The notes beneath the pieces were generated by a model. That model made no database searches, had not been told where the DNA came from, and was given only the letters and a program-made list of their open reading frames with translations. Below, one piece after another: positions 37,053-44,389 of a stretch of DNA of 64,000 nucleotides. Numbering within the stretch: position 1 is the first letter of the stretch; each line of letters starts with the position of its first letter. Source of the stretch: Ochrobactrum teleogrylli (lineage in GTDB: Bacteria; Pseudomonadota; Alphaproteobacteria; Rhizobiales; Rhizobiaceae); assembly GCF_006376685.1 (NCBI RefSeq), contig NZ_VEWL01000014.1, positions 1 to 64,000 on the forward strand, written 5' to 3'. The position numbers and the translations under genes are program-made.

Positions 37053-37077
37053 GGAACAAAGGCAATCGTTTGCGGTT
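37053..37077 (+). promoter_or_regulatory. EcfG-type promoter for the BON-domain gene
   Basis: GGAAC (37053-37057), 17-bp spacer, GTT (37075-37077) with CG before it. It lies 42 bases ahead of the BON gene start. Matches the GGAAC-N16/17-CGTT signature of alphaproteobacterial EcfG promoters. Confidence 0.6.
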
Positions 37078-37118
37078 GGGTTGGCTGTCATTTGCCAATG
37101 ACCAAAGGAGCACGTGAT

Positions 37119-37652
37119 ATGCCAGGTCGATACCAAAACGAAGATCGCGACGACTATTATAACGAACCCTACCGGGACCGTGATTATGAAAGCCGTGGCG
37201 GAAACTACCGCGACTATGACGAACGCTATCCGGGCGATTATCGTTCGCGCGGCTATAGCGATGACGAGGAACGCTTCGCATATAATTCGCCGCAAAGAGA
37301 ATCTTTTGCGCGCGATAGCCGCTATGAGCGTCACGGCGCACGCAATGAGCCGATGAAGTCCTCAAGCGGCACAGGAATGCATCGCGGAAAGGGACCGAAG
37401 GGTTACAACCGCACGGACGAGCGCATCAAGGAAGATGTCTCTGACGCCTTGATGGAAGATGCAGATCTTGATGCCTCCGACATTGAGGTCAGCGTCAAGA
37501 AGGGCGAAGTCACCTTGCAGGGACAAGTCGCAACCCGACAGGATAAACGCCGCGCCGAGGATTGCGCCGAAGCATGTGCGGGCGTGGCAGATGTTCAAAA
37601 CAACATCAAGGTCCGCTCGGCCACGGCGACATCCGCCAAGGGTACAGCTTAA
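37119..37652 (+). CDS. BON-domain stress protein with Tyr/Arg/Asp-rich N-terminus
   Basis: 177 residues from ATG 37119 (AAGGAG seven bases upstream). Residues 1-80 are an unusual low-complexity region of Tyr, Arg, Asp and Glu (RDYDERY and similar). A BON domain follows at about 100-168 (ERIKEDVSDALMEDADLDAS, EVSVKKGEVTLQGQVATRQDK, GVADVQNNIKV). BON domains bind membranes and occur in OsmY-type stress proteins. There is no signal peptide, so the protein appears cytoplasmic, which is unusual for the family. An EcfG-like promoter precedes it, and the GW-repeat protein gene follows, possibly in the same transcript. Confidence 0.85.
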   Translation: MPGRYQNEDRDDYYNEPYRDRDYESRGGNYRDYDERYPGDYRSRGYSDDEERFAYNSPQRESFARDSRYERHGARNEPMKSSSGTGMHRGKGPKGYNRTDERIKEDVSDALMEDADLDASDIEVSVKKGEVTLQGQVATRQDKRRAEDCAEACAGVADVQNNIKVRSATATSAKGTA

Positions 37653-37751
37653 TCGAAACCGGAACTCGCGGCTGCGGGAATGCAGCTGGAGAAGGGCTCT
37701 TGCAGCTCAATGCGCCACTGCGCGCAAAATTCATACAATCAGGAGGAAAAA

Positions 37752-38336
37752 ATGCCACGTAATATGCCAGAACGTGACGATCAGGGCCGCTTTGTCAGTG
37801 ATGATGACCGCAGCAGAGCCGGCGGTCGTCGCCACTATGCCGAAAGCCGCCGTGATGACGATTATCGCAGGTCCAGTCGTTACGACGATGACGACAGGGG
37901 ACGCAGCCACGGCGGCTGGTTTGGTGATGCGCAAGGACACGCTGAAGCCGCCCGCCGTGGCTGGGACGAACGCCGCGACGACAGGGATTATGACGATCGT
38001 CGCCGCTATTCCAGCCGCAATGATGATTACGACGACCGTCGTTCCAGTCGCTATGACGACGATGATCGTGGTCGTGGCTGGTACGGTGACTCTCGCGGGC
38101 ATGCAGAAGCCGCCCGCCGGGGCTGGGACGAACGACGCGATGACCGCGATGACGGTCGACGCAGCTATTCCAGTCGCGATGATGATCGCCGTTACGCAAG
38201 CCGTGACGATGACCGGCGTTCCAGCAGTCGGGGCCATGGCGGCTGGTTCGGCGATCCGGAAGGCCATTCCGAAGCGTCGCGGCGGGGATGGGATGATCGC
38301 CGCGATTACGAATATGATGATCGTCGCAGGCGTTGA
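37752..38336 (+). CDS. Hydrophilic GW-repeat protein of unknown function
   Basis: 194 residues from ATG 37752 (AGGAGG just upstream). Composition is extreme: Arg, Asp, Ser and Tyr make up most of the chain, with SSRDDDRR-type stretches. Three copies of a motif GW(F/Y)GDxxGH(A/S)EA(A/S)RRGWD(D/E)RRD lie at residues 55-77, 109-131 and 164-186, spaced 54-55 residues. The spacers are disordered-looking. The motif core (GH-EAARRGW) is seen in short proteins of rhizobia, but no function is known to me. Likely stress-induced, given the neighbours. It resembles a multivalent scaffold, perhaps for nucleic acid or condensates (speculation). Confidence 0.8.
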   Translation: MPRNMPERDDQGRFVSDDDRSRAGGRRHYAESRRDDDYRRSSRYDDDDRGRSHGGWFGDAQGHAEAARRGWDERRDDRDYDDRRRYSSRNDDYDDRRSSRYDDDDRGRGWYGDSRGHAEAARRGWDERRDDRDDGRRSYSSRDDDRRYASRDDDRRSSSRGHGGWFGDPEGHSEASRRGWDDRRDYEYDDRRRR

Positions 38337-38601
38337 TGTTCCAAAGTTGGTAGGGGCGTCCATCCGGTCGCCCTTACCGGCCGGGTAGCTTGTAAAAGTC
38401 TGAATAGTTGACGTAATAGTAAGTTGTATAACGGTTTAATTCTACCTAAAGGTGCAAAGAAAGCGGCGCGGAAAAATAATGAATAACCGCATCCTTTTGT
38501 ACGGATGAGCTTTTCTTGATCCACATATTAAGTGATCAGGGAATGATATCTTTATGAGAATGAATATGGTTCGCTGGTTATGTCGAAGCCGGGAGCCAGA
38601 C

Positions 38602-38889
38602 ATGCCATTTTTTAATGAAGCGAGCCGCATCTATAATCAAATTGAAGTCGACTTCATGAGAAGTTGTTATGCTCACGCGGCTATAATGCTGGAAGAAAGT
38701 GACCGGGGATATTCGGCGCGCGATTTGGCGTCTTTGACACTGTTGCTTTATGACAGCGGTCTTCGCGACCATAATTATATTACCGAACTGGTCGCCCGGC
38801 TCGCCAATAAGAAATTCATGGATCGCCGTCAAAAATCGATGGCGGCAAATTCAAATCTTGAGGGAACAAACTCTAGCGCAGGCGGTTAG
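38602..38889 (+). CDS. Small conserved protein, copy 1 of a paralogous pair
   Basis: 95 residues from ATG 38602 (GGGAGCC upstream). It opens MPFFNEASRIYNQIEVDFMR, and then SCYAHAAIMLEESDRGYSARDLASLTLLLYDSGLRDHNYI is predicted helical. It is 65-70 percent alike to the product of 43358-43648 over the first 80 residues, with the C-terminal tails diverging. No family was recognised. An EcfG-like promoter (38863-38887) lies inside its 3' end and drives the next locus, not this gene. Its own promoter was not identified. Confidence 0.75.
   Translation: MPFFNEASRIYNQIEVDFMRSCYAHAAIMLEESDRGYSARDLASLTLLLYDSGLRDHNYITELVARLANKKFMDRRQKSMAANSNLEGTNSSAGG
38863..38887 (+). promoter_or_regulatory. EcfG-type promoter upstream of the DUF982 pseudogene
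   Basis: GGAAC (38863-38867), 17-bp spacer, GTT (38885-38887), within the 3' end of the preceding gene and 113 bases ahead of the pseudogene start. Same spacing as the other sites in the island. Confidence 0.55.
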
Positions 38890-43009: not shown

Positions 43010-43357
43010 CTTGTTTTTCTTCGGGTAGAGTACGAGCGCCTCGCCGTCACGCTCCCAATCCTCTTTGACGGTTTTAAGTCTATAACACTTTGATCCGGCA
43101 AATGATTTTTGGTACGCTAGCGGACAATTCCGGCAAAGCCAGCCAATCAGGAGCCACTTTCGGGAAAGCCGCTTTGTTGAGATGTACTTCAAAACGAGCA
43201 GCTTTGCAGAAATGGGACTTAGAAGGGGAGTCCGATAGTGGCAACAGGCGGCCTGAAGAACGGAGACCGCGGGAAAGCTATATGGTCTGTACGTTAGCAG
43301 ACCCTTTAATACGCGGCTGAGAAGTAGGCGCATAATGGTTTTTTAATGGAGGCAGAC
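43010..43357. other. Intergenic region between the second crp-like gene and the small paralogue
   Basis: No gene supported; the extended frame of the crp-like gene runs through it but lacks a start signal. GGAAA (43272-43276), a 16-bp spacer and GTT (43293-43295) may be a weaker EcfG-type promoter for the gene at 43358. Confidence 0.4.
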
Positions 43358-43648
43358 ATGCCATTATTCCACGAAGCAAGCCGCATTTACAGCCAGGTCG
43401 AGGTCGACTTCATGCGCAGTTGTTATACATTGGCGGCGATCATCCTCGAAGAGAGTGATCATGAATATTCGGGCCGGGATTTGGCGTCATCCATCCTGCT
43501 TCTCTATGATAGCGGGCTGCGGGACCAGAACTATATTGTAGAGCTTTCCGCCCGGCTCTCGCACAAGAAGTACGCAGATCGTCATCAGCCGAACACTGGG
43601 GTAGCAAATTCCAATGCACGCCAAGGGGTCATTGCGGATGACACCTAA
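43358..43648 (+). CDS. Small conserved protein, copy 2 of the paralogous pair
   Basis: 96 residues from ATG 43358 (GGAGG upstream). MPLFHEASRIYSQVEVDFMR opens it, and SCYTLAAIILEESDHEYSGRD and LASSILLLYDSGLRDQNYIVEL follow, nearly all matching the product of 38602-38889; the last 20 residues differ. Predicted all-helical and soluble. A variant EcfG-like promoter lies upstream. The pair spans the stress island, so the family is probably a general-stress component. Confidence 0.75.
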   Translation: MPLFHEASRIYSQVEVDFMRSCYTLAAIILEESDHEYSGRDLASSILLLYDSGLRDQNYIVELSARLSHKKYADRHQPNTGVANSNARQGVIADDT

Positions 43649-43707
43649 CTGTGCTTGTTTTCAAAGGAACCGCTTTCGGCTTGAAAACACCGGCGCTAAA
43701 GGCCTTC

Positions 43708-44295
43708 ATGAACAATAATGATGCTCTGCGCATGTTTCTGAGCCGTAGCGCTGTAGAGATCGCTCCGCAACTGATTGGCTGGACGTTTCGCGTCGGCGAA
43801 GTCGGCGGTCTGATTGTCGAAACTGAAGCCTATTGCAGAACTGACCCGGCCTCTCACAGTTTCTCTGGTCCGACGCGCCGAAACGCCTCCATGTTTGGAA
43901 GTCCGGGCAGCGCCTATGTTTATCGGATATATGGCCTGCATTGGTGCATGAACATTGTCTGCGCCGATGCATCTGCCATACTCCTGCGGGCAATCGAGCC
44001 GCGACAGGGCATACCGCTCATGCAGGAACGGCGAGGTATTACGGACCTGAAGCAGCTTTGTTCGGGGCCGGCGAAGCTTGCCCAGGCTTTGGCAATTTCC
44101 GACGAGTTGGATGGGGCTGCACTTGATGCCGCCCCGTTTTTGCTTTCGGCGCCTGAACAGCCATGCACTGTCGATTGCGGTCCGCGCATCGGTATCAGTC
44201 GAGCAGTTGAGGAGCCCTGGCGCTTCTGGTTGCGAGGGTCCGGTTTTGTCAGCGGGCCAAAATCGCGTTTGAATGCCCCGAAAGTCACGCCGTAA
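43708..44295 (+). CDS. 3-methyladenine DNA glycosylase (AAG/MPG family)
   Basis: 195 residues from ATG 43708 (a GTG at 43651 is an alternative). The AAG signature is clear: LIGWTFRVGEVGGLIVETEAY, SFSGPTRRNASMFGSPGSAYVYRIYGLHWCMN, LLRAIEP and LCSGPAKLAQAL; the Glu in VETEAY is the catalytic base. It removes alkylated and deaminated purines by flipping them out of DNA. It is at the lower end of family size but complete. Its place between small stress protein and catalase genes fits DNA protection. No separate promoter found. Confidence 0.92.
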   Translation: MNNNDALRMFLSRSAVEIAPQLIGWTFRVGEVGGLIVETEAYCRTDPASHSFSGPTRRNASMFGSPGSAYVYRIYGLHWCMNIVCADASAILLRAIEPRQGIPLMQERRGITDLKQLCSGPAKLAQALAISDELDGAALDAAPFLLSAPEQPCTVDCGPRIGISRAVEEPWRFWLRGSGFVSGPKSRLNAPKVTP

Positions 44296-44364
44296 CAGTC
44301 CCGGAAACTTAGCAAAGTTGCCTTGTCGCGCCTGCTTTAAAAGACAAGCGCAAGCGGGCAGTTT

Positions 44365-44389
44365 GGAACAAACCCCAATTCGCAAGGTT
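44365..44389 (+). promoter_or_regulatory. EcfG-type promoter of the catalase gene
   Basis: GGAAC (44365-44369), 17-bp spacer, GTT (44387-44389), 61 bases ahead of ATG 44450. Catalase is a known type of EcfG-regulated gene in several alphaproteobacteria. Confidence 0.65.

What the first reader, a model, noticed from the sequence alone, without database searches (positions are those of the whole stretch)
37053..44389. A compact EcfG regulon: six GGAAC-N17-GTT promoters with identical spacing around an EcfG-like sigma gene
Upstream of the BON protein, the DUF982 pseudogene, the tail-anchored protein, the DSFPASDP/isochorismatase pair (minus strand), a crp-like gene and catalase, the same motif occurs with exactly 17 bp between GGAAC and GTT. 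A seventh (CTT) precedes the sigma gene itself, and a weaker GGAAA-N16-GTT precedes 43358. Seen directly; the match to EcfG promoters is established knowledge. Inference: the small unknown proteins here belong to the general stress response, and an HWE kinase beside them could be the sensor.
Basis: partly seen in the sequence, partly recalled or inferred. Interest (0 to 1): 0.75.

Follow-up and report, generated by a model that had tools for sequence, protein, structure and literature searches.

The report
Stress sigma island with Crp-type operator
A cluster of stress genes surrounds a spare copy of the alphaproteobacterial stress sigma factor and shares its promoters, and a conserved palindrome in front of the sigma gene suggests that a Crp-like regulator encoded next door controls it.

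Summary
Genome-wide the motif is at chance (190 vs 186 reversed controls), but 7 sites fall in 8.75 kb here (0.35 expected) and 13 in 17.4 kb on contig C4 around a sigma paralogue. In 14 relatives spacing 17 gives 106 sites, other spacings 3-27.

The sigma is a non-canonical EcfG. The canonical EcfG with PhyR and the only detected NepR lies on C2. Two features separate the classes: island -10 boxes are mostly G/T/A-GTT rather than CGTT, and residues 44 and 58 differ.

New here: a palindrome GTACG-N4-CGTAC, normally 16 bp upstream of the sigma gene's own GGAAC-N17-CTTA promoter, perfect in 15 of 15 loci. In 32 sigma loci of the family, a Crp regulator like the window's lies within 10 kb of 6 of 6 loci with the palindrome and 0 of 26 without; an added plasmid test was weaker (4/7 vs 2/15). 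I infer that this Crp-type protein controls the sigma gene, a route around NepR-PhyR. R. etli ecfG2, reported to have a PhyR-independent input, has a near copy. Binding is not shown; the HWE kinase's role stays open.

The parts
35636..35660 (-).
35265..35522 (-). DUF982 protein gene, 113 bp downstream of that site
   Evidence: Pfam DUF982, 57.6 bits against a cut-off of 22.2
35846..36925 (+). PAS-HWE histidine kinase; no GGAAC-N16..18-GTT site upstream on its strand; part in the circuit unproven
   Evidence: Pfam PAS and HWE_HK; the kinase models of NCBIfam stay below their cut-offs
37053..37077 (+). promoter-like site of the BON gene, -10 GGTT
37119..37652 (+). BON-domain protein
   Evidence: Pfam BON
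38602..38889 (+). small protein SPa, no Pfam or NCBIfam match, paralogue of SPb
38863..38887 (+). promoter-like site before the DUF982 remnant, -10 GGTT
39000..39252 (+). DUF982-like remnant with an in-frame TAG; end approximate; likeness to DUF982 judged by eye
   Evidence: read from the sequence
39377..39401 (+). promoter-like site of the tail-anchored protein, -10 GGTT; the orthologue in L020 has one too
39424..39747 (+). small protein ending in a hydrophobic segment (tail-anchored, by eye)
39771..40460 (-). isochorismatase-family protein
   Evidence: Pfam
40464..40784 (-). DSFPASDP protein, first gene of the minus-strand pair
40812..40836 (-). promoter-like site of the DSFPASDP/isochorismatase pair, -10 GGTT
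40854..40867 (.). palindromic operator GTACGGTAACGTAC, 16 bp before the sigma gene's GGAAC and 17 bp from the GGAAC of the divergent gene
40884..40908 (+). sigma gene's own promoter, GGAAC-N17-CTTA
40938..41426 (+). non-canonical EcfG sigma factor (SIG6)
41507..41531 (+). promoter-like site of CRP1, -10 TGTT; present at the crp1 gene in 13 of 14 relatives (11 at N17, 2 at N18)
41565..42302 (+). CRP1, Crp/Fnr-type regulator; proposed binder of the operator
   Evidence: Pfam HTH_Crp_2 and cNMP_binding; linkage
42299..43009 (-). CRP2, second Crp/Fnr-type regulator (start assumed)
43112..43125 (.). second operator copy, one mismatch, upstream of CRP2
43289..43302 (.). weaker operator-like site GTACGTTAGCAGAC (two mismatches), upstream of SPb; identical in L020 and L021
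43358..43648 (+). small protein SPb, no Pfam or NCBIfam match
43651..44295 (+). DNA-3-methyladenine glycosylase
44365..44389 (+). promoter-like site of the catalase gene, -10 GGTT; also in L020 (GGTT) and L021 (TGTT)
44450..46564 (+). large catalase (HPII/KatE type; NCBIfam HPII model below its cut-off, Pfam catalase domains above)

Best explanation
The region is the regulon island of a non-canonical EcfG sigma factor. Shown by sequence: the sigma gene sits among genes that carry a GGAAC-N17-GTT site before their start codon; the -10 class is mostly G/T/A-GTT; the sigma gene's own promoter is GGAAC-N17-CTTA; and a palindrome GTACG-N4-CGTAC lies 16 bp upstream of that promoter's -35 box. Inferred: the palindrome is the operator of the Crp/Fnr-type regulator CRP1 (or its paralogue CRP2). 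The crp1 gene itself has an EcfG-type promoter, so sigma and Crp form a feedback loop that sets the sigma level by transcription. This is an input that does not need NepR and PhyR, which were found once in the genome, next to the canonical EcfG. The operator centre lies about 50-60 bp before the predicted start (estimated from the sequence), a usual place for a Crp-type activator, so activation is likelier than repression. The catalase, the BON and DUF982 proteins and the small proteins are the output.
For: Cluster: 7 sites in 8.75 kb and 13 in 17.4 kb on C4 against 0.35 and 0.69 expected. Spacing: 106 at N17 against 3-27 at other spacings in 14 relatives; 52 of 106 have an ATG of a frame of 60 or more codons 15-50 bp downstream against 12.75% of random positions. 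Paralogue split: five canonical loci 9 of 10 CGTT; Brucellaceae islands 9 of 126 CGTT; W44 and A58 in 6 of 6 canonical sequences, S58 in 59 of 59 and L/I44 in 57 of 59 others. Operator: perfect in 15 of 15 orthologous loci, 16 bp from GGAAC in 13; with up to one mismatch only two places in the 4.76 Mb genome, both in this island. Crp link: 6 of 6 against 0 of 26, p=1.1e-6; without the five canonical loci 6 of 6 against 0 of 21, p=3.4e-6. Loci of Crp relatives, after dropping three whose operator includes the sigma gene's own, hold an operator in 7 of 26 cases against 3 of 77 control loci, p=0.002. The geometry GTA-N8-TAC is that of NtcA, a CRP-family protein (PMC3898017, abstract in the listing). 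One NepR match in the genome.
Against: No binding, transcript or mutant data. On 22 plasmid loci the same strict test gave 4 of 7 against 2 of 15 (p=0.054): three loci have the operator and no Crp within 8 kb. L032 has the operator 35 bp from GGAAC and no Crp in its 11.7 kb. Upstream of the Crp genes themselves sites are only slightly in excess of the downstream control (5 of 29 against 3 of 29 at PWM score 12 or more; 4 of 30 with at most one mismatch, against 0-4 for ten control words). The composite operator-GGAAC pattern is not enriched across the order: the reversed control matches more often, and 15 genomes outside the family have matches near neither gene. Orthologous sites and related genomes are counted repeatedly, so p-values overstate. 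In the 22 plasmid islands CGTT is commoner (29 of 126). In S. granuli both EcfG paralogues transcribe a GGTT promoter in vitro (PMC7083833, section read); in M. extorquens the consensus is C/GGTT and no ecfG gene appeared transcriptionally regulated (PMC4814048, passages).
Confidence: 0.62

Rival explanations
1. The island is simply part of the canonical EcfG regulon: NepR-PhyR-EcfG on C2 drives these promoters, and the window's sigma is an amplifier without its own input.
For: Same -35 box and spacing as canonical EcfG promoters; R. etli ecfG2 expression falls to about half without EcfG1 (PMC3892343, passages).
Against: Sites cluster around the two sigma paralogues and show no genome-wide excess; canonical loci have CGTT in 9 of 10 sites, own-genome islands in 1 of 20; in E. 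coli R. etli EcfG1 did not stimulate the ecfG2 promoter directly.
Confidence: 0.25
2. The palindrome is bound by another regulator that happens to travel with these islands, and Crp is a passenger.
For: Only linkage supports Crp; three plasmid loci and L032 have the operator without a linked Crp. No other regulator family was tested for linkage.
Against: 6 of 6 against 0 of 26 linkage over several genera; operators also at Crp loci away from the sigma gene; 14-bp palindrome with the GTA-N8-TAC geometry of a known CRP-family site.
Confidence: 0.25
3. The HWE kinase at 35846-36925 is the sensor that switches this sigma on, through PhyR or a NepR-like protein.
For: HWE kinases feed the general stress response elsewhere (established knowledge; also abstract of PMC12148442 in the listing); a 73% relative lies beside the sigma in L021 and 30-41% relatives in ten more of 14 loci.
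Against: Not found in the loci of the closest relative L020 or of L025 and L030, each held for 10 kb upstream of the sigma; no NepR or PhyR here; no GGAAC-N16..18-GTT site upstream of it on its strand.
Confidence: 0.2
4. The sites are chance matches in a GC-rich genome.
For: Genome-wide counts equal the control.
Against: Local density, one spacing, start-codon distance and conservation.
Confidence: 0.02

Closest known systems
Rhizobium etli CFN42 EcfG2 (non-canonical EcfG on plasmid p42f)
   Same: Same class of sigma, away from nepR and phyR; its 24 kb stretch has 12 GGAAC-N17-GTT sites against 0-2 at the other spacings from 12 to 22, 1 of 12 CGTT; an operator-like GTCCGGTATCGTAC (one mismatch) upstream; a Crp/Fnr gene 6.8 kb away, start to start. 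A catalase gene is under EcfG2 control there (PMC3892343, passages).
   Different: Its -35 box reads GCGAC where the relative IE4771 has GGAAC. I identify the gene with PF00052 by position on the plasmid only.
Canonical EcfG with NepR and PhyR (C2:152374-153535 of this genome)
   Same: Sigma of the same family, GGAAC -35 box, spacing 17.
   Different: Mostly CGTT -10 boxes, W44 and A58, linked NepR and PhyR, no operator.
Sphingomonas melonis EcfG regulon
   Same: GGAAC-N17-20-GTT; EcfG-dependent genes include a Crp-like protein, Ku, topoisomerase IB and a catalase (PMC6599016, passages).
   Different: The passages I saw describe no operator on a sigma gene and targets throughout the genome rather than an island.
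NtcA of cyanobacteria (CRP family)
   Same: Palindrome GTA-N8-TAC (abstract in the listing).
   Different: Different organism group; CRP1's ligand is unknown and no shared function is claimed.

Membership tests
ECF15 / EcfG sigma factors | ECF sigma with regions 2 and 4 only | tested here: met
   Pfam Sigma70_r2 and Sigma70_r4_2 above cut-off, 162 aa
ECF15 / EcfG sigma factors | closest to EcfG among known sigmas | tested here: met
   PhyR_sigma2 model above its cut-off of 27 bits (29.8, 32); best solved relative 5uxx, E 5e-30 (that it is a RpoE-NepR complex is recalled); own canonical EcfG 39% identical; no NCBIfam EcfG-specific model passed its cut-off among the 25 of 77 shown, only the general sigma70-ECF model
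ECF15 / EcfG sigma factors | promoters with a GGAAC -35 box and fixed spacing | tested here: met
   that this sigma uses them is inferred
canonical EcfG | CGTT -10 box | tested here: not met
   1 of 20 own-island sites and 8 of 106 in relatives
canonical EcfG | nepR and phyR next to the sigma gene | tested here: not met
   NepR only at C2:152893, PhyR at C2:152374
canonical EcfG | NepR binds and inhibits the sigma | not testable with these tools
   needs an interaction assay
Crp/Fnr regulators (CRP1) | cyclic-nucleotide-type sensor domain and Crp helix-turn-helix | tested here: met
   Pfam cNMP_binding 28.7 bits (cut-off 27.5), HTH_Crp_2 44.6 (cut-off 27)
Crp/Fnr regulators (CRP1) | cAMP-binding residues of classical CRP | tested here: inconclusive
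   Weak alignment to solved relatives (best E 2.1e-6); the classical cassette, as I recall it, is not evident
Crp/Fnr regulators (CRP1) | binds the proposed operator | not testable with these tools
   genomic linkage only

The most novel reading that the evidence does not exclude
Rhizobiales run a second stress-sigma branch wired differently from the textbook one: non-canonical EcfG factors prefer their own promoter class (G/T/A-GTT instead of CGTT, with the L/I44-S58 signature) in compact islands, and a subset of them is switched at the gene by a Crp/Fnr-type regulator through GTACG-N4-CGTAC, in a loop independent of the NepR-PhyR partner switch.
Probability: 0.5. Interest if true: 0.75.

Novelty: new variant of a known kind. 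Interest (0 to 1): 0.6.

Why it matters
About half of the completed alphaproteobacterial genomes surveyed in PMC3892343 carry two or more EcfG copies. That paper (one part and passages seen) says the extra copies are not satisfactorily explained, reports an EcfG1/PhyR-independent input to ecfG2, and found no promoter motif for EcfG2 targets. This work offers a motif, two marker residues and a candidate regulator with its operator, all testable in a harmless laboratory rhizobium. My paper searches listed none that links a Crp-type regulator to control of an ecfG gene; they cover open-access papers only, and one search showed 25 of 15,249 hits and so tells little. Of the four papers that hold EcfG, Crp and alphaproteobacteria together, all were looked at in passages: one notes a Crp-Fnr gene downstream of phyR in Rhodobacter sphaeroides, without a regulatory claim in the passage (PMC5830050).

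Tried and rejected
Rejected: the GGAAA-N16-GTT site before 43358; a BON-type promoter at C3:61600, which matches the window's site in 24 of 25 letters but has no BON homologue in the 16 kb searched; a NepR-like small gene between the EcfG-type site and SIG4 on C4, where the small frame is a KGG-repeat-like protein. Order-wide search of the composite operator-GGAAC pattern in 397 genomes: 19 matched; own, G281 and G295 lie before such a sigma, G229 before a Crp relative, the other 15 near neither within 1.5 kb; the reversed control matched more often. Autoregulation of Crp genes by the operator: weak. L260 and L266, the two plasmid loci with a linked Crp and no operator before the tested sigma, have operators elsewhere in the locus (before the Crp gene; before a second sigma gene); by 'operator anywhere in the locus' the plasmid count is 6 of 6 Crp loci against 5 of 16 others, p=0.012, a criterion chosen after seeing the data. 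Sigma tree of 68 rows: the operator label needs 9 changes against 19.5 shuffled, at least 3 forced; three long-branched or poorly filled rows (L019, L226, L034) were left out of the residue count. Rows dropped or not seen: L032 from the column count; L256 overlaps CRP1's locus, so 29 and not 30 Crp loci were used; 22 of the 40 listed plasmid hits were fetched, chosen by me for variety; of the sigma matches only the 32 with loci were tested, mostly the best one of a genome, five of them canonical; the output was cut in the middle (parts of L026-L028), so repeats the crp1 sites for 14 loci. No structure prediction was run.

Papers, what I saw: PMC3892343 part 1 of 6 and passages; PMC7083833 passages and its section 11; PMC6599016, PMC4814048, PMC11387232, PMC7713065, PMC5830050, PMC5869019 passages; PMC3898017 and PMC12148442 listing only.

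
Full report
What was checked. All six GGAAC-N17-GTT sites are in the sequence at the stated places, and a seventh lies at 35660-35636 on the minus strand, upstream of an intact DUF982 gene. The window is the first 64 kb of contig C6 of a 4.76 Mb genome close to Ochrobactrum/Brucella. Seven sites lie in 8.75 kb where 0.35 are expected, and thirteen lie in 17.4 kb of contig C4 where 0.69 are expected, around the paralogue SIG4 that is 51% identical to the window's sigma.

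Comparison. In the 14 related loci L020-L033 (269 kb) spacing 17 gives 106 sites; the other spacings from 11 to 24 give 3 to 27. Of the 106, 78 are followed by an ATG of a frame of 60 or more codons within 120 bp, against 37% of random positions. The same genes are preceded by the site in different species: the crp1 gene in 13 of 14 relatives (11 at N17, 2 at N18), the catalase in L020 and L021. In 9 of 14 relatives orthologues of both sigmas (SIG4 at 69-84%) lie in one island about 4-5 kb apart; in this genome they are on two contigs. In 22 plasmid loci, nearly all from Rhizobiaceae, around relatives of the sigma, spacing 17 occurs 126 times against a mean of 11.5 for ten off-spacings.

Which sigma. 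The genome holds three EcfG-like sigmas. The canonical one is on C2 with NepR (the only match to the NepR model in the genome), PhyR and a CHASE3-HisKA_2 kinase. The window's sigma has no NepR or PhyR nearby. At five canonical loci 9 of 10 sites of spacing 17 have CGTT; in the own islands 1 of 20, in Brucellaceae relatives 8 of 106, in the R. etli CFN42 stretch 1 of 12, in the plasmid islands 29 of 126. Off-spacing background sites in the relatives have C in 36 of 105, so C is depleted in the islands (p=1e-6; orthologues are counted repeatedly). Six canonical sequences all have W44 and A58 (numbers of the window's sigma); of 59 non-canonical ones all have S58 and 57 have L or I at 44. These positions flank the loop that, as I recall, reads the -10 element in ECF sigmas; the causal link is inference. 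GGTT is an accepted variant elsewhere (C/GGTT in M. extorquens, PMC4814048), and in vitro both paralogues of S. granuli use a GGTT promoter (PMC7083833), so the split is a preference at most.

The operator. Aligning the DNA upstream of the sigma gene showed two conserved blocks: the sigma's own promoter GGAAC-N17-CTTA, and a palindrome GTACG-N4-CGTAC. The palindrome is perfect in the window and all 14 relatives; it lies 16 bp from GGAAC in 13 of 15, 17 bp in L025 and 35 bp in L032. With up to one mismatch in the pattern GTACGNTANCGTAC it occurs at two places in the whole genome, 40854 and 43112, the second upstream of CRP2; the reversed control gives 22 per strand, so the palindrome is rare elsewhere. 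Nine of 14 relatives have a further copy with at most one mismatch between the sigma and crp1 or at CRP2, and weaker copies (two mismatches) lie before CRP2 or the small-protein gene.

Who binds it. The candidate is CRP1, a Crp/Fnr-type protein encoded within about 1 kb after the sigma gene in 13 of 14 relatives (all but L032), with an EcfG-type site of its own. In 121 genomes of the family I took the 32 sigma loci that the tools returned: six have the operator with at most one mismatch within 330 bp upstream, and each of the six has a CRP1-type gene within 10 kb; of the 26 without, none has (p=1.1e-6; without the second same-genus genome 5 of 5, p=6e-6; without the five canonical loci 6 of 6 against 0 of 21, p=3.4e-6). 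A second set, 22 of 40 listed plasmid hits, was weaker: 4 of 7 against 2 of 15 (p=0.054). Loci around Crp relatives, after dropping three whose operator includes the sigma gene's own, hold an operator in 7 of 26 cases against 3 of 77 control loci (p=0.002). In R. etli CFN42 the ecfG2-type gene has GTCCGGTATCGTAC (one mismatch) upstream and a Crp/Fnr gene 6.8 kb away. The R. etli paper reports PhyR-independent expression of ecfG2 and no motif for its targets (PMC3892343), which fits a separate input but does not show it.

Mechanism. Best reading: stress or growth state, by an unknown signal, makes CRP1 act at the operator; the sigma is made, reads its own promoter class, among it crp1 and, through the CTTA promoter, possibly its own gene; the catalase and the other products follow. 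Shown: the elements, their spacing, conservation and linkage. Inferred: binding, sign of control, autoregulation, and the products' part in stress survival. The HWE kinase may add to it, but its linkage is loose.

Standing. It is a member of the EcfG (ECF15) family by domain, similarity and -35 box, and not a canonical EcfG by -10 box and gene neighbourhood. What is new against the papers I could search is the operator with its Crp link and the paralogue-specific promoter and residue marks.

Noticed in passing
L022 10902-10928, L024 10900-10926, L030 10562-10588: The crp1 promoter reads GGAAC-N17-GTTCC, so that the same letters form a GGAAC-N17-GTT site on both strands; in L022 and L024 a small-protein gene lies divergently.
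   Followed up: partly
C4:22337-23179 (L100): SIG4 lies directly behind a KGG-repeat-like protein gene with a GGAAC-N17-GGTT site; several relatives show a like site before a like protein near their SIG4: a possible self-driven operon.
   Followed up: partly
window 38863-39252: The DUF982 remnant keeps its promoter-like site at about the same distance (112 bp) as the intact DUF982 gene at 35522-35265 (113 bp).
   Followed up: partly
C3:61600-61683: A divergent pair of GGAAC-N17-GTT sites; one differs from the BON-gene site of the window in a single letter, without a BON gene nearby.
   Followed up: partly
C23:331915 (L014): A CGTT-class site lies 126 bp before a frame that looks like Dps, a possible canonical EcfG target (the name Dps is by eye).
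   Followed up: no
window 37752-38336: Repetitive R/D/Y-rich protein with units such as GWFGD and GHAEAARRGW beside the BON gene; no Pfam match.
   Followed up: no
L033 10001-10484: The sigma gene of Brucella cytisi LMG 22713 reads as a shortened frame of 81 codons; not examined further.
   Followed up: no
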